NCBI RefSeq assembly: GCF_011059185.1
Contig: NZ_JAALFE010000008.1
Coordinates: 62,001-126,000, forward strand
Direction: 5' to 3'
DNA from: Paragemmobacter kunshanensis
GTDB taxonomy: Bacteria; Pseudomonadota; Alphaproteobacteria; Rhodobacterales; Rhodobacteraceae
DNA: 64,000 bases
Within the stretch, counting starts at the first letter, position 1. Each line of letters opens with the position of its first letter. The notes under the pieces were generated by a model, which was not told the origin of the DNA, made no database searches, and saw only the letters and a list, made by a program, of their open reading frames with translations. Made by a program: the position numbers and the translations under genes. Positions 7,002 to 51,823 of this stretch are shown piece by piece.

Positions 7002-9638
7002 TCACGACGGAAGCCGCAGATCCCTCAACCGCTCGGGCAGTTCCCGAAAGCGCGGGATGTCGCGGGCCGCCGGGCCATAGATTGCAGCGCAAATTCCCGG
7101 AAACAGCGCTTCCAACTCCTCAAGCGCGGGCCGGTTCAGCGCGGCAAGCGCCTGCGGGCCGGGATAGAAACTTTCCGACCACAGCCCCGCACTGCGCAAG
7201 ACCTGATGCCTCTCGAACATGAGATGCACATAGGTGACACCCCGGCAGCCCATCCGCTGCCGCACCCCGCCCCCCTTCAGCCGCGCCAGATGGATGGCGC
7301 GGAACAGCCGTTCCTCCCCGTCGGGGTCCCGCAGCAACACCGCATGTTGCGGCGACACGTCCAGCCGCAGGTCATTGCCAAGGGCGCCCGCCGCGATCTC
7401 GACCGGCAGCAGCTTGGGGTTCGCCACAAGATCGGCCTGCGACAGCCTTCGCATCGCGCTCCACAACAGGGGTTGCGGCCCGTTGTCCCGCGTCAGCACC
7501 AGATCCCCCGGCCGCAGCGCCTCTACCGGAACGGGGCCGCCGGGCGTGTCGATGGGCGTGCCCGCCGTGAAACAGGGAATCCCCATGGAATGAAGCCTCT
7601 GCGGCGTCAGGGTTGCCGGTGAAACACCCTGCAGCAGAAGGCTTTCGCCCTGCGGGAAGACCAGCCGCGCATTGCCGTCGCCCGTATCCTGAACCACCGT
7701 GTTCCAGACGGTAACACCGCGCCCGGTGCCATCATCCAGCGCCGAGACATCCAGCTGGTCATTGGTGAACCCCGTTCCGAAGGGATCGCCAAAATCGAAA
7801 TCCGAAACCGTGTCATTGCCGCCCGACACATCCATGACAAGAACGTCATTGCCCGCGCCCGAGGCCAGGCTGTCATTCCCCTGCCCGCCGACCAGGACAT
7901 CGGACCCTTCCCCCCCGATCAGCGTGTCGTGCCCATCATTCCCCTGCAGCAGGTCATCCCCATCGCCGCCCAGCAGGACGTCATTGCCGCTGCCGCCCGA
8001 CAGGCTGTCATTGCCTGCCCCGCCGCTTGCGCTGTCATCCCCGTCGCCCGCATTGACGCTGTCATTGCCATCACCGGCAGAGATGCTGTCGTTCAGGCCA
8101 TCCGCGCCGTCGATCTCGTCGCCCTGCGTGTCCTGATAGCCGCTGGTCATCGTGTCATCGCCAGCGGTGCCATCGACGACGGAATCGCTGACATAGCTGC
8201 TCACGTCGATCGGCCCGCTGGTAAAGGCACCGGTCCCGGTGCCGTCGTCATTGCCGACCCATCCGACAGTGAAACTGCGCGCGACGGGGTTGTAGACGAC
8301 CGAGAAATTGTCCCAGTCGAACCCGTCATTGGTATTCATGCCCTCGGCCATGTTCGGAAGGACAAGGGGAATATCGCCGGTAAAGGCATTGCCATCGGAA
8401 TCGAAGATCCGATAGTTCAGCCCTGTCTTCGTATCGAAGGCGGCATCGCCATCGGGATAGACCGCGACGAAATAGCCGCTGTCGCCCAGGGCCGCCAGTT
8501 TCGCCGGCCCGGTATAGATATCCGAAGGCGATTGCGGGATCTGAACGTCCGAAACAACCGTCGTTCCATTCGCATCCGTGTCGATGATGGAAAAGCGCGG
8601 GTATGTGTTGCTTGGGTCATAGGCAGGATAGGAAATGGCAACGGTTCCGTTGCCCAGTGACACGATCGAAAGATGCTGGACATCATAGCCATCATATCCG
8701 TCGACAGCGCCGGTCCCGATGCGGAAATCCCCGGTTGCTGGGGTGCCATCCGCATTGAAGATGCGCCCTTCCAGGCTCATGGTCGTAGAGTTGTTGCTGT
8801 AGCCGTCATTGATCCACAGCGCCATCCAGCGCCCATCCTCCAGCGCCATAAGCGTCGGAGGGGATTCCCAGACGGTCGATTGGGATTCGTTGTCGGTGCC
8901 TTCAACCTCGGCTGTTGAAAAGACAGTCGCACCGTTCTGGTCCAGAACGGTGTAGACAGGTTCGTTGTTGCCCGTTTCGGCATGGCTGCGCGCCCAGCCG
9001 ACGACGACGTTCCCCCCGGTCAGCGTGATGACGGAAAGGTCAGCCAGATCCGAACCGTCCGAACCGTCGATCGCCACATTGCCGATCCGGAAATCGTTGG
9101 TGACCCAGGTCCCGGTATTCGGGTTGAAGATGCGCCCCTCGACATGCATCGTCGTGAGACCGTCGGACAGCGCGTTGTTCGACCAGACGAAAAGGATGTT
9201 GCCGTTGTCCAGAACCGTCGTCACCGGCGGGCTTTCCGATCCGGTGGTGTCGGAAGACTGAATCTCCGTCGCGGGCGTGGTGATCGTGATCGTGGATGTG
9301 TCGGGCGTCAGGATGGTGAAGATCGGCTCATCCCCGCCCGTCTCGGTGGCGGAACGCACATAGCTGACAACCACCCGCCCATCCGGCAGCAGATCAAGAT
9401 CGAGGTTGTCCCAGTCATACCCGTTGCTGCCATCGACGGCGGGCAGGCTGGCCAGGCTGATCTGGTCCGTGGCGGGCGTCCCATCGGCATTGTAGATGCG
9501 CGCGTTCAGTTCGACGGTCGCGGTGTCGGCAAGGGCGTTATCCGTCCAGACATAAAGGATGCGGCCATCATCCAGCACCAGCATCAAGGGCGGCGACTGG
9601 TTGCCTGTGGTTTCGGAATTGACCTGCGTCGTGGACAT
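7002..9638 (-). CDS. Secreted RTX-type protein with C-terminal Hint domain and four N-terminal repeats
   Basis: 878 residues, no N-terminal signal peptide. Four related blocks of about 115-120 residues open the protein; the first three each start with an SPP...LxDGRxLxVW-like strand, and all share a YD(W/G)xNxxx motif, suggesting a beta-propeller or beta-sandwich array. Acidic glycine-rich calcium repeats (GGSGNDVLLGGDGDDLLQGN style) follow at about residues 500-600, the hallmark of type I secretion substrates. From about residue 689 comes a Hedgehog/intein (Hint) domain: CFTAGTPIDTPGGPVPVEAL, RPGDLVLT, LDVSPQHAVLL. The start at 9638 is supported by AAGGGTG upstream; the frame is open further but reads as non-coding. 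No type I secretion genes are adjacent. Target and function are unknown. Confidence 0.85.
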   Translation of the reverse strand: MSTTQVNSETTGNQSPPLMLVLDDGRILYVWTDNALADTATVELNARIYNADGTPATDQISLASLPAVDGSNGYDWDNLDLDLLPDGRVVVSYVRSATETGGDEPIFTILTPDTSTITITTPATEIQSSDTTGSESPPVTTVLDNGNILFVWSNNALSDGLTTMHVEGRIFNPNTGTWVTNDFRIGNVAIDGSDGSDLADLSVITLTGGNVVVGWARSHAETGNNEPVYTVLDQNGATVFSTAEVEGTDNESQSTVWESPPTLMALEDGRWMALWINDGYSNNSTTMSLEGRIFNADGTPATGDFRIGTGAVDGYDGYDVQHLSIVSLGNGTVAISYPAYDPSNTYPRFSIIDTDANGTTVVSDVQIPQSPSDIYTGPAKLAALGDSGYFVAVYPDGDAAFDTKTGLNYRIFDSDGNAFTGDIPLVLPNMAEGMNTNDGFDWDNFSVVYNPVARSFTVGWVGNDDGTGTGAFTSGPIDVSSYVSDSVVDGTAGDDTMTSGYQDTQGDEIDGADGLNDSISAGDGNDSVNAGDGDDSASGGAGNDSLSGGSGNDVLLGGDGDDLLQGNDGHDTLIGGEGSDVLVGGQGNDSLASGAGNDVLVMDVSGGNDTVSDFDFGDPFGTGFTNDQLDVSALDDGTGRGVTVWNTVVQDTGDGNARLVFPQGESLLLQGVSPATLTPQRLHSMGIPCFTAGTPIDTPGGPVPVEALRPGDLVLTRDNGPQPLLWSAMRRLSQADLVANPKLLPVEIAAGALGNDLRLDVSPQHAVLLRDPDGEERLFRAIHLARLKGGGVRQRMGCRGVTYVHLMFERHQVLRSAGLWSESFYPGPQALAALNRPALEELEALFPGICAAIYGPAARDIPRFRELPERLRDLRLPS

Positions 9639-9976
9639 GCGCGCACCCTTGCCATGGAAGACCCCGACGTCGGATGCCGCCCCATTCAGGGCGTCGCCCG
9701 GGCGCGATGCGCGGGCGGCACGTCGCGGCGAAGATGCAGGAAAAGCCCTTGCCGTTTTCCTAACGCCCCTGCTTCTGGCGGGACTGTTTTCCGAAAATGC
9801 CAAAGGATCTTCCGGGCCTGTTCCCGATCAGATCGGGCAGAAACCCCATCCCCCGGCGGGCCTTGCACCGCCCTTCCTGCCGCTTTCCGCTTTCAAGTGG
9901 TTCCGAACTTTGCGACAGAAACAGTCAACCGGTCCGCGCGACCCAGGCGCCGCCGCTTTCCATGACGGAGGATCCC
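9639..9976. other. Divergent spacer between the Hint/RTX gene and the aldo/keto reductase
   Basis: About 340 bp without a convincing gene. It should hold the promoters of both flanking genes. The only clear structure is a short palindrome, CCCGATC-A-GATCGGG (9823-9837), a possible operator. Open frames across it have no recognisable protein character. Confidence 0.5.
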
Positions 9977-11124: not shown

Positions 11125-11979
11125 ATGGCCAGGCAGGGGAATGCCGCGCCAGTCGTCATCAAACGGAAGAAGATCATCGCCGGCGGCGGCCATCACGGCG
11201 GGGCATGGAAAGTTGCCTATGCCGATTTCGTGACCGCGATGATGGCTTTCTTCCTGTTGATGTGGCTGTTGAACGCGACAACGGAAAAGCAGCGCAAGGG
11301 GATTGCCGACTATTTCAATCCCACGATCCCGATCAACCGCGTCTCGGGCGGGGGGGATGGTGTCTTCGGCGGCGACAATGTCCTCAGCGAGAACACGCTC
11401 GCGCGCAATGGCGCGGGCGCCTCCGCCACGGATCCGATCCAGACCACCAGGTCGCAGGCCGAGGGCGGCCCGACAGCCGCCGATCTCGCCGCGGAAGAGG
11501 CGATGCTGCGCGAGATCGAGTCCCAGCTTGCCGCCTATACCGGCGAAAGCATGGTGTCCGATCGCCTGATGCGCCATGTCGTGACACGCCTGTCCGATGA
11601 GGGCCTGGTGATCGAGGTGTTCGATACCGAAGATGAACCGCTCTTCCTGTCCGATACCGCCGAGCCGCGCCCGATCCTGCGTGATCTGGCCGACATTCTG
11701 GTAAAGGTGACGGCCCTCGCTTCCAATCGGATCGCGGTTTCCGGCCATGTGCGCGCCTATCCGATCACCCTGCGGCAGGATCCCACCTGGGATCTGTCCA
11801 CCGGCCGCGCGCAGGCGATGCGCTCCCTTCTCGTCGCGGCGGGGCTGGAGCCTGCGCGCCTGCAGCGCGTGGCAGGCTATGCTGCGCGTCGCCCGGCGAC
11901 GGCAGATCCGGCATCCATCCGGAACAACAGGATCGAAGTGACGCTGCTCAGGCGACAACCGGGAATGCAGAGCTTTTGA
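11125..11979 (+). CDS. motB: Flagellar motor protein MotB
   Basis: 284 residues, the peptidoglycan-anchored stator subunit. A single N-terminal membrane helix (YADFVTAMMAFFLLMWLLNA) carries the proton-relay aspartate, Asp34. A linker follows, then a C-terminal OmpA-like domain (SGHVRAYPITLR, STGRAQAMRSLL, NNRIEVTLLR). Three in-frame ATGs (11101, 11113, 11125) compete. 11125 is chosen because GGGTGG stands just upstream, while 11101 has no SD. motA is not adjacent. It is followed 77 bp later by flgE in the same direction, a usual Rhodobacteraceae neighbour. Confidence 0.9.
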   Translation: MARQGNAAPVVIKRKKIIAGGGHHGGAWKVAYADFVTAMMAFFLLMWLLNATTEKQRKGIADYFNPTIPINRVSGGGDGVFGGDNVLSENTLARNGAGASATDPIQTTRSQAEGGPTAADLAAEEAMLREIESQLAAYTGESMVSDRLMRHVVTRLSDEGLVIEVFDTEDEPLFLSDTAEPRPILRDLADILVKVTALASNRIAVSGHVRAYPITLRQDPTWDLSTGRAQAMRSLLVAAGLEPARLQRVAGYAARRPATADPASIRNNRIEVTLLRRQPGMQSF

Positions 11980-12056: not shown

Positions 12057-13571
12057 ATGTCGATCACTTCTTCGCTCAACGCCGGGGTGGCGGGGTTGAA
12101 TGCCAACGCAACACGTCTGGCAACGATTTCGGACAATATCGCAAACTCCAATACCTTCGGCTACCGCCGGGCCTATGCCGATTTCGAAAGCCTCGTCGTC
12201 GGCGGCACGCGTGGCAGCGGTGGCTATACCGCGGGGGGCGTCAATGCCACGGCCCTCCGCCTCATCGCGGAATCCGGCCCGCTTGTGGCCACCTCGAACG
12301 CACTTGATCTTGCGGTGGCGGGCCGGGGGATGCTGCCCGTGCGCCCCGCCGTCGGCAACGGCACCTCGGGCAGCGAACAGGCGATGCAGCTGATGCGGAC
12401 AGGGGCCTTCCGCCCCGATGCCCAGGGCTTCCTGACGACGGAAAGCGGCATGCTGCTGCTGGGCTGGCCCGCCGATCTGGATGGATCCATCCCGACATTC
12501 CCGCGCGATTCCGAACTTGGCCTGCAGCCGATCCGGATCGACATGAACCAGCGTGTCGGCGATCCGACGACGCTTGTCCGCCTTGGGGTGAACTTGCCCG
12601 CCACAGCCACCACGGTCGGCGCGGATGGCGACAGCCTGCCATTGTCGGTGGAATATTTCGGCAATCTCGGCACGTCCGAGACGCTGGCGATCAGCTTCAC
12701 GCCCACGGTTCCCGCCTCTGGCTCTGCCTCGAACAGATGGACGATGGTGATCCGGGATTCCGCCTCGGACAACGCTGTGATCGGCGAATACACGATCCAG
12801 TTCGACGATTCGCGCGGGCTTGGCGGCATGATCGATTCTGTCACCGCCGTTTCCGGTGGCGCCTATGATGCGGCGACAGGGAACATCACCCTCAATGTGG
12901 CGGGCGGGCCGATCTCCATCGCCCTGGGCACGCCGGGCACGAATACCGGCCTGACGCAGCTTGACGATGCATTTGCGCCCGCAGGTATCGTCAAGGATGG
13001 CTCTCCCATCGGCACGCTCACCGCGCTCGAGGTGGATGCCGAAGGCTATCTCAATGCCAGCTACGATACCGGCTTCTCGCGGCGTCTGTTCCAGATCCCG
13101 CTGGTGGATGTGCCCAATGTCGCGGGTCTCATGCCGCTGGCCGGGCAGACCTATCAGGTCACCCAGCAATCGGGGGCCTTCATGCTCTGGGATGCGGGCA
13201 CCGGGCCGACGGGCACCGTCGCAGGCTTCGCCCGCGAAGGATCGACAACGGATGTCGCCGCCGAACTGACCGCGCTGATCCAGACGCAGCGCGCCTATGC
13301 CTCGAATGCCAAGGTCATCCAGACCGTGGCATTGTCCTTGGCCGAGGCAATGGATTTCCCGGTCGAGATCTCCGATTGCGTCCGGCTCAGGTTCGAATTG
13401 ATGGATTTCATCGTTTGCAGCGCAACCATCGCGCTGTTGTTGGTCAGAATGGACGACATCTTCGTTCCCCATGAAAAAGGCGCCTTTGGCGCAGGTTGGC
13501 CGACGGGTTCTGCCCGTTGCGCCGACCCCGGGCCGACGCGCCACCCCGCTGCGGGATGCCCCCTCATCTGA
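12057..13571 (+). CDS. flgE: Flagellar hook protein FlgE with a foreign, chimeric C-terminus
   Basis: The frame encodes 504 residues, but only about the first 424 are FlgE. The N-terminal rod-type motif is intact (SSLNAGVAGLNANATRLATI, DNIANSNTFGYRRA), as is the central hook domain. The family C-terminal motif starts normally (VAAELTALIQTQRAYASNAK, then VIQTV) and then stops matching. From about base 13325 the frame runs through the antisense strand of a flagellin gene, adding about 80 unrelated residues. The final D0 helix residues that FlgE needs for polymerisation are missing. The start has AGAAAGGCG upstream. The product is probably non-functional in hook assembly unless the junction is an assembly error. 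Confidence 0.85.
   Translation: MSITSSLNAGVAGLNANATRLATISDNIANSNTFGYRRAYADFESLVVGGTRGSGGYTAGGVNATALRLIAESGPLVATSNALDLAVAGRGMLPVRPAVGNGTSGSEQAMQLMRTGAFRPDAQGFLTTESGMLLLGWPADLDGSIPTFPRDSELGLQPIRIDMNQRVGDPTTLVRLGVNLPATATTVGADGDSLPLSVEYFGNLGTSETLAISFTPTVPASGSASNRWTMVIRDSASDNAVIGEYTIQFDDSRGLGGMIDSVTAVSGGAYDAATGNITLNVAGGPISIALGTPGTNTGLTQLDDAFAPAGIVKDGSPIGTLTALEVDAEGYLNASYDTGFSRRLFQIPLVDVPNVAGLMPLAGQTYQVTQQSGAFMLWDAGTGPTGTVAGFAREGSTTDVAAELTALIQTQRAYASNAKVIQTVALSLAEAMDFPVEISDCVRLRFELMDFIVCSATIALLLVRMDDIFVPHEKGAFGAGWPTGSARCADPGPTRHPAAGCPLI
13295..13459 (-). pseudogene. fliC: Flagellin gene remnant: N-terminal 47 codons only
   Basis: Reading leftward from ATG 13459 (SD GGGGAACGA) the product begins MSSILTNNSAMVALQTMKSI and continues to SIASAKDNATVW. 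This is a textbook alphaproteobacterial flagellin D0/D1 N-terminus. After Trp47 the frame leaves flagellin sequence (MTLAFEA, stop) because it enters the antisense of flgE. Flagellins are normally some 270-400 residues, so over 80 percent of the gene is gone, including the C-terminal D0 helix. The flaF and flbT genes that commonly follow flagellin are absent too. Confidence 0.88.
13319..13330. other. Junction of flgE and flagellin: 12-bp sequence compatible with both genes
   Basis: CCAGACCGTGGC reads as the end of native FlgE (IQTV) on the plus strand and as ATVW of flagellin on the minus strand. The two sequences diverge from their families just past this string. It is the expected footprint of microhomology-mediated joining of two convergent genes. 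Confidence 0.7.
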
Positions 13572-13632
13572 CGGCAGAGGGATTAAGCCTTTCCTGATGC
13601 CGCCCGGCCCTTTTCATCGGATTTGATGTAAA

Positions 13633-13953
13633 TCACAGCCGCCGGCCCTCGGTCCCGCCGGTCATCGGCTGGCGGCGTCCGGTCCTGTCATAGATGTCGG
13701 CCCGTTCGGCGGCGGCAAGTTCGGCCAGGCGGCGCATGCCCGCACGCAGGCCCGCCTGCGCGGCCTTCAGGCATTCCATGTTCCGCTGCGCAAGACGCCG
13801 ACTGTCGCCCCGCCCCCCGGCCAACGCCTGGCGTGGTTCCGCCAGAAACGTCTCTAATTCTGCGCAATATGCCTCGATTCGCAGAAACTCGCCGCGCCGC
13901 AGATCCGCGTTCATCGCTTCGAGAATCGCCCTCAGCCGGGTATCGCGGGTCAT
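13633..13953 (-). CDS. Small flagellar-cluster protein, possibly FlgN-like chaperone
   Basis: 106 residues, highly charged and predicted mostly helical (LRAILEAMNADLRRGEFLRI, LKAAQAGLRAGMRRLAELAA), with no signal or membrane segment. Size, helical character and position between an flgJ-like gene and a flagellin gene fit a FlgN-type export chaperone for hook-associated proteins, but no diagnostic motif was seen, so this is inference. Its ATG overlaps the flgJ-like stop by 4 bases (ATGA), so the two are co-translated. The flagellin stub lies 173 bp downstream in the same direction. Confidence 0.6.
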   Translation of the reverse strand: MTRDTRLRAILEAMNADLRRGEFLRIEAYCAELETFLAEPRQALAGGRGDSRRLAQRNMECLKAAQAGLRAGMRRLAELAAAERADIYDRTGRRQPMTGGTEGRRL

Positions 13954-14219
13954 TTCCCTTCCTCCGCCCAGGACCGGATCAACCGCTCCGCCAGCCCGAT
14001 TCCTCCGGCCCGCACCATGGCGGCGGCCTGCCCCTCGCGCAGGAAAGAGGCGAATTGTTCCTCGCCAATGCCGCCCGAGAACGCCCCCTTCTGCGGGCTC
14101 ATCCCGGCATGGCGCAGCATTTCGGCAAGAAAGGCCGTCTCCAGCTCGGCCGCCCGGGCGCGAATCGAAGGGGCTTGCGCGGGCGGGAGCGGTGCGTGGG
14201 GCAGGGTGGCAGGGTCCAT
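13950..14219 (-). CDS. Rod-binding protein, FlgJ N-terminal type
   Basis: 89 residues. The core (AAELETAFLAEMLRHAGMSP, then GGIGEEQFASFLREGQAAAM, then GGIGLAERL) is the FlgJ N-terminal rod-capping domain. The muramidase domain found in enterobacterial FlgJ is absent, as is usual in alphaproteobacteria. ATG 14219 is chosen because CTGGAGG stands 5 bp upstream; the longer frame to 14312 lacks family similarity. It would help assemble the flagellar rod in the periplasm. Divergent from fliK. Confidence 0.78.
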   Translation of the reverse strand: MDPATLPHAPLPPAQAPSIRARAAELETAFLAEMLRHAGMSPQKGAFSGGIGEEQFASFLREGQAAAMVRAGGIGLAERLIRSWAEEGK

Positions 14220-14333
14220 GAAACCTCCAGTTCTCCGGAAAGGGACAATTCCATCGGTTTTGCCGCAGGCCGGTAAAGAATCAGTAACCGCTCTGCGGCA
14301 AATCTGGATCAAACGGCAGAAGTCGGGCGTCAG

Positions 14334-16487
14334 ATGATTCCACCGATCCTTTCCTCCCTATCGTCCCGTTCCGGCCCGGACAGGCATGATCCGCTGTCCG
14401 GAACCCGCGATGAATTCGGCTCTATCTTTGCCGAATTCCTTCTTCTTCCCGTTCCGGGCCAGCAAGATGCCAGCCCTGCGCCGGACGCCATCGTCGATGC
14501 GGGGCGTGATGATTCCAAGGCTGATGCAGCGCTGGAATCCCCGCCAGATGGCTGGAACGGGGATCCGTCACCGCCTGCCCAGATGGGGCAGATCCCGGTG
14601 CAACCAGATGGCTCGGCAGGCCCGCAGGCCGCCTTGCTGCCCTGGCTTGCTCCGACGATCGCCCCGACAACCGCCCCGTTGATCGCCCCGGCCGATGCCA
14701 CGACGAACGCCCTGGCGGTTGCCCCGGCGAATGCGCCAATGCATGTCGTCGCTGTCCCCGCTTTTGCCCCGACCAATGCCCCCGCCTCCCGTGGAGGTGA
14801 CATCGAGCCTGAACCTGACCCCCTGGTTGCAACCACTGCCCCCGCCTCCCGTGGAGGTGACATCGCGCCTGAACCTGACCCCCTGATTGCGACCAATGCC
14901 CCCGCATTCCGTGCAGATGCCACCGAGCCGGAACCCGTCCCCCTGTTTGCCGGGCCTTCCGTCCCCCCCTTGCCCAAGGCCGGGGCTATTCCTGCGTCGG
15001 TATCCGGGCCAGTTGCGCGCCAACTTGCCAGCCCCGACATGCCCATCGCGGGCACCGGCATCCCGCCGATGGCCGATCCTCCGGTCACCCCTTCCGGCCC
15101 TGCAGAAACCAGCCGGAATTCCGCAATTTCAGCCATGTTAGAGCCTGTTCATGCTCCGATTGGCAGCGCCCCGCTGCCCCCCCTTCCCCTTGATTCCAAT
15201 CCACAGCCTGAACCCCAAGGCAGCAAGACTGCCGCAATAATCGCTCAGGCCACGCACCTTCCCCCCCGCCCCGGATCCGAGCCTGGGGCGCGCATGGCGA
15301 CGTCCGTTCCCCCCCCTGGCCCGGCCCCTGCTCAAATACCCTTGACGGTGCCCATCGCGGTTCCCGTCACCTTTCCCGTGTCTCTGCCCGATCTCGCGAC
15401 CATCGCCATGGGCGCGGGGTGGCCCCCAATCGCACCTTACGGAGACGACCCGCAGCCATCGCTGCCTGTGCCAGCCATGCCGTCATCCATGCAAAATAGT
15501 CTCGAACATGGCTGGAATGATGCGAAACTTGCCGCTTCTTCTATGTCGGATCGGGCGTTGCTCCTCTCCGCACCTGCCGCGCCCGTCGCTGCCTCTGCCC
15601 CGTCCTTGGGCTCAGAGATCGCGCCGCTGGAACCCCCGGCCCCCGGCGCTCCGGCGGCTGTCGCCCTGGTTTCGGCTGCCGGGCAGGGACTCGGCACCGC
15701 CCTGCCCGTTGCTGCCGCGCCGGAAATCCCGGCGCAGCCAGCCACCGCCCCGGTCGCGCCCGGGGATCGTGACCTGTCACCCCCTGCCATGGGCAGCCCT
15801 GCACCGGCAGGCTGGCCGCCTGCAGCCGAACCGGCAGCAGAACCGGCAACCGTATCAAGGCAGGGCCCGGCCTCCCTCGACCCGATCCCACCCGAACCGG
15901 CCCCGCGCGGCCGATCTGCCGACCTTCCGCAGGCCGGGCAGGCCGTTCCGGCCCCGGCGGCAGTGTCGGGCGCCCCGACCGAAATGCCGCCAACCGCAAT
16001 CAGCGCCGCCCCCATCGCAGATGCGCCGGATCCCGGCGCCCCCCCGGATCACAAGGCCCCGGCAACATCGGATCACGCCCCCCGTCCGCTTGCGGCCACG
16101 ATGCTGCAGCTCTTGCAGACAGGCCCGGATCAGCCGGTCACGCTCAAGCTCTCGCCTGCCGAACTTGGCACCCTGCGGTTCGAGATCCTTCAGCGTGACC
16201 AAGGCCTGCACCTTCACCTCTCTGTCGATCAGCCTGCCGCGCTCGATCTTCTGCGCCGTCAGGGCGATCAGCTTCTGGCCGAACTGCGCCAATCCGGCTT
16301 TCCTGGCGCGACGCTCAGCTTTGCGGGCAGTTTCGCGGGCGGTGGCGGCCAGGATGCACCGGCCTCCCAGGGCAACCCCTCCCCCGCCCCGCGCCAGTCC
16401 CCGGATCCGGCCCCGCAGGCGGCAGCCCTGCCCCCTTCGGCGGCAAGGCCATCCGCCCAGTCGACCTCGCTCGATCTGCGCCTGTGA
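14334..16487 (+). CDS. fliK: Flagellar hook-length control protein FliK
   Basis: 717 residues. Long Pro/Ala-rich, low-complexity N-terminal and central regions lead to a C-terminal hook-length domain at about residues 585-670: LQTGPDQPVTLKLSPAELGT, FEILQRDQGLHLHLSVDQ, LDLLRRQGDQLLAELRQSGF. FliK is exported during hook growth and triggers the switch to filament export. It includes a tandem 20-residue repeat (about residues 147-206). flgD follows 33 bp downstream. With flgE broken nearby, its partner may be lost. Confidence 0.85.
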   Translation: MIPPILSSLSSRSGPDRHDPLSGTRDEFGSIFAEFLLLPVPGQQDASPAPDAIVDAGRDDSKADAALESPPDGWNGDPSPPAQMGQIPVQPDGSAGPQAALLPWLAPTIAPTTAPLIAPADATTNALAVAPANAPMHVVAVPAFAPTNAPASRGGDIEPEPDPLVATTAPASRGGDIAPEPDPLIATNAPAFRADATEPEPVPLFAGPSVPPLPKAGAIPASVSGPVARQLASPDMPIAGTGIPPMADPPVTPSGPAETSRNSAISAMLEPVHAPIGSAPLPPLPLDSNPQPEPQGSKTAAIIAQATHLPPRPGSEPGARMATSVPPPGPAPAQIPLTVPIAVPVTFPVSLPDLATIAMGAGWPPIAPYGDDPQPSLPVPAMPSSMQNSLEHGWNDAKLAASSMSDRALLLSAPAAPVAASAPSLGSEIAPLEPPAPGAPAAVALVSAAGQGLGTALPVAAAPEIPAQPATAPVAPGDRDLSPPAMGSPAPAGWPPAAEPAAEPATVSRQGPASLDPIPPEPAPRGRSADLPQAGQAVPAPAAVSGAPTEMPPTAISAAPIADAPDPGAPPDHKAPATSDHAPRPLAATMLQLLQTGPDQPVTLKLSPAELGTLRFEILQRDQGLHLHLSVDQPAALDLLRRQGDQLLAELRQSGFPGATLSFAGSFAGGGGQDAPASQGNPSPAPRQSPDPAPQAAALPPSAARPSAQSTSLDLRL
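14771..14950 (+). repeat. Three tandem 60-bp repeats inside fliK
   Basis: Units 14771-14830 and 14831-14890 are nearly identical (encoding APASRGGDIEPEPDPLVATT-type units). The third, 14891-14950, is diverged. They are in frame, 20 codons each. The preceding 100 bp (ATCGCCCCGACAACCGCCCC and similar) looks like older, degenerate copies. Such repeats expand and contract by slippage and would vary the FliK length. Confidence 0.85.
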
Positions 16488-16520: not shown

Positions 16521-17177
16521 ATGATGGACCCCCTTCTTCCCGCAACGGCCGCCGGCACGGCCCGGACAGGCGGCAGCTTTGCCGCCGGGTCCGGGGCGGA
16601 TTTCACCACCTTCCTGCGGATGCTGACCACGCAGATGGAAAATCAGGATCCGCTGAACCCGATGGAATCCACCGATTTCGCGGTGCAACTAGCCACCTTC
16701 TCGGGCGTCGAACAGCAGGTGCAGACGAATCGCCTGCTTTCCTCGCTCTCCGGGCAGTTCGGCCTGATGGGCATGGCCCAGCTTTCGGGCTGGATCGGGC
16801 AAGAGGCGCGCAGTTCTGCCCCCGTCCATTTCGATGGCCAGCCCGTGACGCTGTCCTTCCAGCCTGCGCCGATGGCCGATGAACTGGCCCTTGTCGTCCG
16901 GGATGCCCGGGGCACCCTCGTGGCGCGCGAACAGGTGCCGCCGGGACAGACCAGCTATCGCTGGCTGGGCGGCGATGCGGCGGGCAATCCTGCTGCGCCG
17001 GGGGTCTACAGCTTTCAGCTTGAAAACCTGCGCGCGGGCGAGGTGATCCGCACCGATCCGGCCCAATCCTATGCCCGCATCGAAGAGGCGCGGCGCGATG
17101 GCGACCAGATCACCCTGATCCTGCGGGGCGGCGTCGCCATCAACGCGGATGCCGTCACCGCCCTGCGCGCGCCCTGA
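16521..17177 (+). CDS. flgD: Flagellar hook capping/scaffold protein FlgD
   Basis: 218 residues. The N-terminal FlgD signature is clear (DFTTFLRMLTTQMENQDPLN, PMESTDFAVQLATFSGVEQQ). A FLN/Tudor-like C-terminal region follows (LSFQPAPMADELALVVRDAR, AAGNPAAPGVYSFQLENLRA). FlgD caps the growing hook and is needed for FlgE polymerisation. AAAGGAAC precedes the tandem ATGATG; the second ATG (16524) is equally possible. It forms an operon with fliK. Confidence 0.93.
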   Translation: MMDPLLPATAAGTARTGGSFAAGSGADFTTFLRMLTTQMENQDPLNPMESTDFAVQLATFSGVEQQVQTNRLLSSLSGQFGLMGMAQLSGWIGQEARSSAPVHFDGQPVTLSFQPAPMADELALVVRDARGTLVAREQVPPGQTSYRWLGGDAAGNPAAPGVYSFQLENLRAGEVIRTDPAQSYARIEEARRDGDQITLILRGGVAINADAVTALRAP

Positions 17178-51021: not shown

Positions 51022-51823
51022 CCGAGGCCCGCTTGCCGGTATAGTATTCCCCGATCAGCCCGATCGTCAGGCAGGCCAGCATCACATAGATCGGATAGTC
51101 GATCGTCGTGTAACGCGGCGCATAGTTCAGAAAGATATAGCCGCGTCCCTGGTCGATCGTATGGAACAAGGGGTTCCAGTCGAAGAAGGCCAGCACCGCC
51201 GTGGGCATGGCATTGGCCACGAACATCTTGCCCGAGGCGATCATGTTGATCCGCGTGTAAACCGCGGCAACCATCCCGAACAGCCGCGGCTGCCAGGGAT
51301 TGGCGGCCCGGAACATCATCCCGATGGCAATCCCCGTGGCCCAGGACAGGATCAGCATGGCGACCATGCCCACCGGATCGTCAAAGGTCAGCGGCGTGAT
51401 GACGGCGTGATAGACATAAAGGATGATCGAGGCGGAAAAGACCTGCAGATACAACGTCCCCAGCGCCGCCGAGGCAACGGCGATGATCGTGTTCATCGGG
51501 GCATGCTTCATCATGGCCGAAGTCGGCCCATCCGCCCGGATGACGGCGTTCATCGTCTTCACATGGGTCATGTACAGGAACACGCCCGACATCAGGAACA
51601 GGATGTAATCCCCCCTGATGGAATTCGGCCGCGCGCCCGCGAAGGTGAACATCACGTAAAAGCCGATGATCATGATCGAGGACTGGATCACGTTCAGCAC
51701 AAGGCCCATCACCGCGCTGGTATGCGATTTCCGCACATTGTGGACCGCGCCGTGAAAGACAAGTTCCAGCATCCCGAATGCTGTTCTTGTCCGGGTTCGC
51801 CTGACATCAGCCTGAAATCGCAC
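50999..51823 (-). CDS. ABC-2 type transport permease, KpsM-like (polysaccharide export)
   Basis: 274 residues with about six membrane helices (AVMGLVLNVIQSSIMIIGFY, YILFLMSGVFLYMTHVKTMN, MVAMLILSWATGIAIGMMFR, YPIYVMLACLTIGLIGEYYT). The pattern is that of capsule/teichoic-acid type export permeases. The start is GTG 51823 with GAGGGAC upstream. Its ATPase (KpsT-like) is not adjacent. Divergent from the cysQ-kdsB-galU region, whose products fit capsular polysaccharide synthesis, so a role in glycan export is inferred. Confidence 0.78.
   Translation of the reverse strand: MRFQADVRRTRTRTAFGMLELVFHGAVHNVRKSHTSAVMGLVLNVIQSSIMIIGFYVMFTFAGARPNSIRGDYILFLMSGVFLYMTHVKTMNAVIRADGPTSAMMKHAPMNTIIAVASAALGTLYLQVFSASIILYVYHAVITPLTFDDPVGMVAMLILSWATGIAIGMMFRAANPWQPRLFGMVAAVYTRINMIASGKMFVANAMPTAVLAFFDWNPLFHTIDQGRGYIFLNYAPRYTTIDYPIYVMLACLTIGLIGEYYTGKRASVSWTMGK

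What the first reader, a model, noticed from the sequence alone, without database searches (positions are those of the whole stretch)
13280..13460. flgE and a flagellin gene are fused tail to tail, each missing its 3' end
Plus strand: FlgE reads normally up to VIQTV (residue about 424), then runs into antisense DNA. Minus strand: a flagellin N-terminus reads normally for 47 codons to ATVW, then runs into antisense flgE. The 12 bp CCAGACCGTGGC (13319-13330) fit both genes. The simplest history is a deletion between convergent genes, joined at microhomology, which removed the end of flgE, probably flgK, flgL and flgI, and most of flagellin with flaF/flbT. The strain would be non-motile while keeping motB, fliK and flgD. 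Alternatives are an inversion or an assembly error.
Basis: partly seen in the sequence, partly recalled or inferred. Interest (0 to 1): 0.75.

Follow-up and report, generated by a model that had tools for sequence, protein, structure and literature searches.

The report
Flagellar cluster repeatedly deleted at one base
A bacterium has lost about 25 kb of flagellum genes by joining its hook gene to its flagellin gene, and the same join recurs at the same place in many related bacteria, several of which appear to have lost the genes independently, which ordinary random deletion does not readily explain.

Summary
In detail: at 13319-13330 flgE (+) runs into an antisense flagellin N-terminus. It is a deletion, but not peculiar to one strain and not an assembly error. 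The same joint occurs in 7 of 18 FlgE-bearing congeners and in 36 distinct genomes from at least ten genera, two of them single-contig. Intact congeners have flgE and fliC convergent, about 24.6 kb apart. Best DnaA and flgE trees each need six changes, and one carrier clade is rejected. Where a close sister exists, both flanks are the carrier's own, and the best break is flgE CAGACNGT|NG fliC, though a break inside the short shared run costs only one more mismatch. Many higher-scoring repeats were available. flgE' and motB show no significant relaxation against intact sisters. FlgI is absent from 21 of 35 carriers. I favour a recurrent, site-specific deletion whose products rarely persist; the enzyme is unknown. 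Rivals: selection for a retained remnant, ordinary microhomology, a spreading deletion allele. This genome has a second flagellar cluster, so "non-motile" is unsupported.

The parts
11128..11979 (+). motB, intact (283 aa)
   Evidence: Pfam MotB_plug and OmpA; best NCBIfam model is MotB, below its cut-off; open in 31 of 31 carrier loci where it is in range
12057..13571 (+). flgE' : FlgE residues 1-424 followed by an 80-residue antisense tail
   Evidence: the 11 intact congeners end VIQTVDEMLQETTNIKR
13319..13330 (.). 12 bp (CCAGACCGTGGC) that fits both genes; best break between 13327 and 13328
13295..13459 (-). fliC' : flagellin residues 1-47 plus 7 residues read from antisense flgE, then a stop (54 aa)
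13460..13632 (-). former flagellin leader/upstream region
   Evidence: by position; the same region is nearly identical in two carrier pairs (G417/G422, G420/G432) but diverged in a Limimaricola pair
13633..13953 (-). 106-aa open frame, no family match
13950..14231 (-). FlgJ-like rod-binding protein
   Evidence: Pfam Rod-binding 5.7e-7
14334..16487 (+). fliK, open frame of 717 aa
   Evidence: Pfam Flg_hook 3e-11
16521..17177 (+). flgD, intact
   Evidence: NCBIfam NF009453 above cut-off; FlgD kept beside the joint in 36 of 36 distinct carriers (joint positions)

Best explanation
The locus is what remains of the ancestral Rhodobacterales flagellar cluster after a deletion of about 24.6 kb that joins flgE, after the GT of its valine codon 424, to fliC, at the third base of codon 44. 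Shown: the deletion exists, the same joint recurs in many species, it arose more than once within this genus, and close carrier/sister pairs show own-lineage flanks. Inferred: a site-specific process cuts or recombines the two conserved coding sites, CAGACNGT|NG in flgE and CAGACNG(C/A)|NG in fliC, and joins the outer ends. The enzyme is unknown; an integrase- or nuclease-like activity is a guess. Inferred: events are frequent and deleted lineages mostly do not persist, so the carriers we see still have nearly pristine remnant genes.
For: Same joint in 7 of 18 congeners and in 36 distinct genomes overall. Six changes on the best DnaA and flgE trees, four resting on starred flgE forks (G001/G004, G017/G015, G018/G008, G010+G011/G007); one carrier clade rejected, AU p 7e-56 and 4e-83. 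Nearest relatives on both flanks are the sister for G017 (G015), G018 (G008), G000 (G003), and for G010/G011 after each other (G007). Best break at +2 to +4 from the start of the GTN codon in five of six lineages and +3 to +4 in the sixth, G001. The T from flgE is in 7 of 7 congeneric carriers. Many higher-scoring repeats were not used. flgE' and motB are not significantly relaxed. Fla1-type loss is sporadic on a mostly vertical cluster (PMC12363192 section 6).
Against: Breaks inside the short shared run cost only one more mismatch, so the exactness rests on that one base being the same in every lineage. No recombinase was sought systematically, and no circle or reciprocal joint was found. G016's nearest flgE flank is that of other carriers of its clade, and G001's flanks are uninformative. 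G234 lost the core with other ends. Signs of age: relaxed selection in five Limimaricola, fliK missing in G416 and short in G407 and G414, flgD short in G414, flgE broken in G421. Sister species that share the joint (G010/G011, G417/G422) are more simply read as one old event each. Carrier frequency differs between genera (7 of 18 here, 11 of 394 family-wide), which a uniform hot spot does not predict. The tree count cannot tell loss from regain.
Confidence: 0.42

Rival explanations
1. Selection on the outcome: deletions arise at random, and this one survives because the remnant (motB, FlgE 1-424, a 54-residue flagellin N-terminus with its leader, flgJ, flgD) has a flagellum-independent use that needs these ends.
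For: Some sister carriers show strong purifying selection: Loktanella flgE' 135 synonymous / 5 nonsynonymous (w 0.009), G417-G422 52/3, G010-G011 14/1. FlgD is kept in 36 of 36 distinct carriers, although 21 of 35 examined have no FlgI. fliK is lost in G416 while its neighbours stay. In Limimaricola pairs fliC' has 0-3 nonsynonymous differences while flgE' has 40-230.
Against: I know of no use for hook or cap proteins without an export gate. The FlgE' tail varies from 16 to 128 residues, the 54-aa frame is interrupted in G157, and flgE is broken in G421. Limimaricola is relaxed in motB, flgE and flgD. It does not by itself explain one exact break.
Confidence: 0.25
2. Ordinary microhomology-mediated deletion at a repeat that coding conservation keeps in most species (CCAGACNG..NG).
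For: A 6-8-bp run with further matches on its right is present at both sites in most intact congeners; a break inside it costs only one more mismatch than the best break in most comparisons.
Against: Regions of 3.0 and 2.6 kb at the two ends hold 36, 27 and 55 direct repeats scoring 10 or more in G002, G003 and G006, while the joint's own pair does not reach the reporting limit of 9. The flgE-derived T is kept in 7 of 7 congeneric carriers, where an event inside the run would keep the fliC base at least sometimes.
Confidence: 0.18
3. One ancient deletion allele that moves between species (by gene transfer agents or transformation) and replaces the intact block through homologous flanks.
For: Flagellin codon 45 is Thr in 7 of 7 congeneric carriers and Ala/Ser in 11 of 11 intact congeners. 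Carriers are scattered in the tree. Two synonymous states in fliC' are shared by carriers of different lineages.
Against: No foreign tract in the close pairs: both flanks match the carrier's own sister, and the base after the T follows the own lineage in G018. Donor tracts would have to be a few bases long.
Confidence: 0.1
4. Assembly error or chimeric contig.
For: The window's genome has 117 contigs.
Against: Same joint in single-contig genomes G011 and G386 and in 36 distinct genomes.
Confidence: 0.01

Closest known systems
Archetypal fla1-type flagellar gene cluster of Rhodobacterales and its sporadic losses (PMC12363192: section 6 read, other passages seen)
   Same: Gene order motB-flgE-flgK-flgL-flgI; a mostly vertical cluster with scattered independent losses
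   Different: The text I saw does not describe break points; here many losses share one joint that leaves a similar remnant
Excision between att-like direct repeats (integrated elements)
   Same: Loss of a defined block leaving one copy of a short core
   Different: No integrase sought systematically and no recognised att site; the sites are coding sequences conserved for other reasons
IS-associated loss of flagellar genes (Paracoccus ferrooxidans pFER4 looks like a case)
   Same: Loss of flagellar genes
   Different: No insertion sequence or scar at the joint here
Microhomology-mediated deletion
   Same: Short shared sequence at the joint
   Different: Same pair used in every carrier although higher-scoring ones exist; best crossover just outside the longest run (by one mismatch)

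Membership tests
fla1-type (archetypal) Rhodobacterales flagellar cluster | motB-flgE on one side and flgJ-fliK-flgD on the other, in congeneric synteny | tested here: met
fla1-type (archetypal) Rhodobacterales flagellar cluster | Core genes between flgE and fliC | tested here: not met
   no hits in the window region to the block genes of G015; the genome's only FlgI is on C41 and its other Flg_bbr_C hits lie on C41
Microhomology-mediated deletion | Joint lies within the longest shared run | tested here: inconclusive
   best break just right of the run in all six lineages, but a break inside it costs only one more mismatch in most comparisons
Microhomology-mediated deletion | The repeat used is among the best available | tested here: not met
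   three intact genomes (a fourth, G008, could not be scored)
Site-specific recombination (att-like) | Same joint in independent events | tested here: met
   to within 1-3 positions
Site-specific recombination (att-like) | A recombinase and its binding sites | not tested
   no candidate looked for systematically; the junction dyad GCCAAGG/CCTTGGC is broken in G417 and G422
Site-specific recombination (att-like) | Reciprocal joint or excised circle | tested here: inconclusive
   none in the 269 loci then fetched or in viral contigs; raw reads not available
Insertion-sequence-mediated deletion | IS or remnant at the joint | tested here: not met
   flgE is directly followed by fliC

The most novel reading that the evidence does not exclude
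Rhodobacteraceae carry a site-specific excision switch: an unidentified recombinase joins a fixed base in flgE to a fixed base in fliC and removes the flagellar core, producing non-flagellated cells at high frequency, with the intact cells carrying the lineage forward.
Probability: 0.2. Interest if true: 0.92.

Novelty: new variant of a known kind. Interest (0 to 1): 0.73.

Why it matters
Parallel loss of flagella is common, but parallel loss at one joint over many genera is not expected from random deletion. It points either to an unknown site-specific process acting on conserved genes or to an unknown use for a defined flagellar remnant, and both can be tested in ordinary laboratory strains. 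It also suggests that some 'non-flagellated' strains reflect one recurrent event rather than gradual decay.

Tried and rejected
Assembly error, inversion and IS excision were considered and rejected (see rivals and membership rows). A dyad GCCAAGG-N21-CCTTGGC around the joint looked like a recombinase site but is broken in G417/G422, so I dropped it. Viral contigs gave no exact copy of the flgE site, the joint, the fliC site or the reciprocal joint. The plasmid collection gave 25 records with partial matches and none covering 80% of the junction query. Synonymous states at fliC' codons 12 and 18 shared by several carriers looked like an introgressed tract, but the sites between them and the joint do not agree with one; they remain unexplained. 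Rfam found nothing near the joint.

Not resolved: three flagellum-less genomes with FlgE (G048, G158, G286) whose FlgE position was not in the capped list, and four of at most 87% completeness (G046, G132, G250, G342). Of these four, G046 and G342 are listed with FlgE over its full length; their stretches fetched were not analysed. The scan required the T at the break, so it cannot show other forms of the joint; one search allowed two mismatches and found none without it. In one search the G386-G157 flgE comparison failed (trimming error) and is not used.

Full report
What is there. The window lies in G000:C96:62001-126000 of a 4.46-Mb genome, 117 contigs, 99.98% complete. At 13319-13330 flgE (+, from 12057) is fused tail to tail to a flagellin N-terminus (-, ATG 13457-13459), as reported. 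FlgE reads to residue 424, then 80 residues of antisense. The flagellin frame has 47 own codons, seven from antisense flgE and a stop. motB, a FlgJ-like protein, fliK and flgD around it have open frames.

Intact counterpart. In G002, G003 and G006 the flgE and fliC sites are 24,584, 24,646 and 24,731 bp apart, on opposite strands. flgE is followed by flgK, flgL, flgI and the rest of the core; flgJ, fliK and flgD lie beyond fliC. Gene names inside the core come from my reading of order and sequence and from the published order of flgE, flgK, flgL, flgI, fliP, fliF in P. inhibens (PMC12363192, passage); few were tested by family search. The carriers compared (G417, G017, G000) show no hits to this block apart from cross-matches between flgE and FlgG.

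Not one strain. Of 19 genomes of the genus, 18 have this FlgE. Seven (G000, G001, G010, G011, G016, G017, G018) carry the same joint; eleven end in VIQTVDEMLQETTNIKR. A family scan of 394 genomes, nearly all one per genus, found the pattern in 12: 11 are the joint, from ten genera, and one, G206, is a chance match in a genome with full-length FlgE. A scan of GTDB contigs gave 31 loci, 27 of them the joint and four not. By title the 27 are Limimaricola (5), Pseudosulfitobacter (2), Sulfitobacter (2), Loktanella (2), Gemmobacter (2), Salipiger, Alloyangia, Marivivens, Roseovarius, Rhodobacter amnigenus, Anianabacter, Litoreibacter, and seven records marked MAG. G434 was added.

Independent. On the best DnaA and flgE trees the deletion state needs six changes, and a single carrier clade is rejected (AU p 7e-56 and 4e-83). 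Four of the separations rest on starred flgE forks (G001/G004, G017/G015, G018/G008, G010+G011/G007); those of G000 and G016 are weaker, and the count cannot tell loss from regain. In Pseudosulfitobacter intact G435 sits among four carriers with moderate support on a protein tree and none on a DNA tree.

Flanks. The last 60 flgE bases of G017 equal those of intact G015; the nearest fliC' and flgE end of G018 are those of intact G008, of G000 those of G003, and of G010/G011, after each other, those of G007. G016 is mixed (fliC' nearest G007, flgE nearest G010/G011) and G001 uninformative.

The break. Modelling each carrier as its sister's flgE followed by its sister's fliC puts the best break at +2 to +4 from the start of the GTN codon in five of six lineages (uniquely +2 for G018, and for G000 and G016 against G003) and at +3 to +4 for G001. 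In most comparisons a break inside the shared run costs one more mismatch. The discriminating base is the flgE T: flagellin codon 45 is Thr in 7 of 7 congeneric carriers and Ala or Ser in 11 of 11 intact congeners.

Homology. Regions of 3.0 and 2.6 kb at the two ends hold 36, 27 and 55 direct repeats scoring 10 or more in G002, G003 and G006; the joint's own pair does not reach the limit of 9.

Other ends exist. Comparing the lists by eye, 14 of 388 genomes have this FlgE (E up to 1e-60) and no FlgI. Seven carry the joint (G134, G146, G157, G171, G175, G300, G386), four are at most 87% complete (two of them listed with full-length FlgE), and three (G048, G158, G286) were not examined. G234, with a weak FlgI match, keeps flgE, flgK and flgL and by hit positions joins the start of flgI to the interior of flgD: a different deletion. 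Remnants with other ends in genomes that have a second FlgI would be missed by this comparison. Paracoccus ferrooxidans shows flagellar remnants among insertion sequences.

Loss is real. With the four duplicate handles merged, FlgI is absent from 21 of 35 distinct carriers; the other 14 have one, away from the joint; four intact controls have two each. FlgD stands beside the joint in 36 of 36. I gave the loci of 36 carriers; its pattern missed G386 and G418. In the other 34, motB is open in 31 of 31 in range, flgE' in 33 (broken in G421, a MAG), and FlgJ-like is matched in 34; fliK is missing in G416 and in short frames in G407 and G414, and flgD is short in G414.

Selection. Pooled over six carrier/sister pairs, flgE nonsynonymous/synonymous codon changes are 97/281 on carrier branches and 68/273 on sister branches (p 0.08); motB 49/152 and 58/152 (p 0.5). 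A rough mixture estimate of mine from the flgE figures puts neutral decay at about 4% of the branch; it has no error bar. Carrier-carrier pairs within Pseudosulfitobacter and this genus have w of 0.02-0.17 for motB, flgE and flgD, against 0.10-0.35 in the intact pairs; two cross-genus carrier pairs are higher (motB 0.22-0.27, flgD 0.49 in one). Loktanella flgE has 0.009. Limimaricola pairs are relaxed, 0.12-0.57 for motB, flgE and flgD.

Reading. Either the deletions are young in most carriers, or the remnant is still used. A frequent, site-specific, young event accounts together for the repeated break, the own-lineage flanks and the pristine genes; a used remnant accounts for the last but not the first. 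Sister carriers that share the joint, and the uneven frequency among genera, speak against the first. I put 0.42 on the first, 0.25 on the second and 0.18 on ordinary microhomology.

Literature. PMC12363192 (section 6 read; passages found) reports sporadic independent losses of this cluster; I saw nothing on shared break points there. Searches listed no paper whose title or abstract start describes such a joint; the library is incomplete, the other listed papers were not opened and supplements were not read.

This genome has a second cluster on C41 with flagellin, FlgI, FlgD and five Flg_bbr_C domains, so motility is open.

Noticed in passing
G000:C41:5000-24000 (L004, L005): A second flagellar cluster (flagellin, a second Flagellin_N protein that may be FlgL, FlgI, FlgD, five Flg_bbr_C domains) on another contig; by recall it resembles the C. 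sphaeroides-type system. Completeness not tested.
   Followed up: partly
window 51104-51257 (+): Match to Rfam RF02645 (Ruegeria cis2 sRNA), 54.6 bits against a cut-off of 50.
   Followed up: no
fliC' codons 12 and 18 in G000, G010, G011, G016, G018: GTT and AAA shared by carriers of different lineages; GTT in none and AAA in two of 11 intact congeners. Synonymous and unexplained.
   Followed up: partly
L205 (G416): Carrier in which fliK is not found, while motB, flgE', fliC', flgJ and flgD remain.
   Followed up: partly
L265 (G234): Different flagellar deletion that by hit positions joins the start of flgI to the interior of flgD, with flgE, flgK and flgL kept.
   Followed up: partly
window 7002-9803 (-): 933-aa repeat-rich open frame with a C-terminal stretch that looks like a Hint-type domain (from reading only, not searched).
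   Followed up: no
window 13633-13953 (-): 106-aa open frame between the fliC leader and flgJ with no Pfam or NCBIfam match.
   Followed up: no
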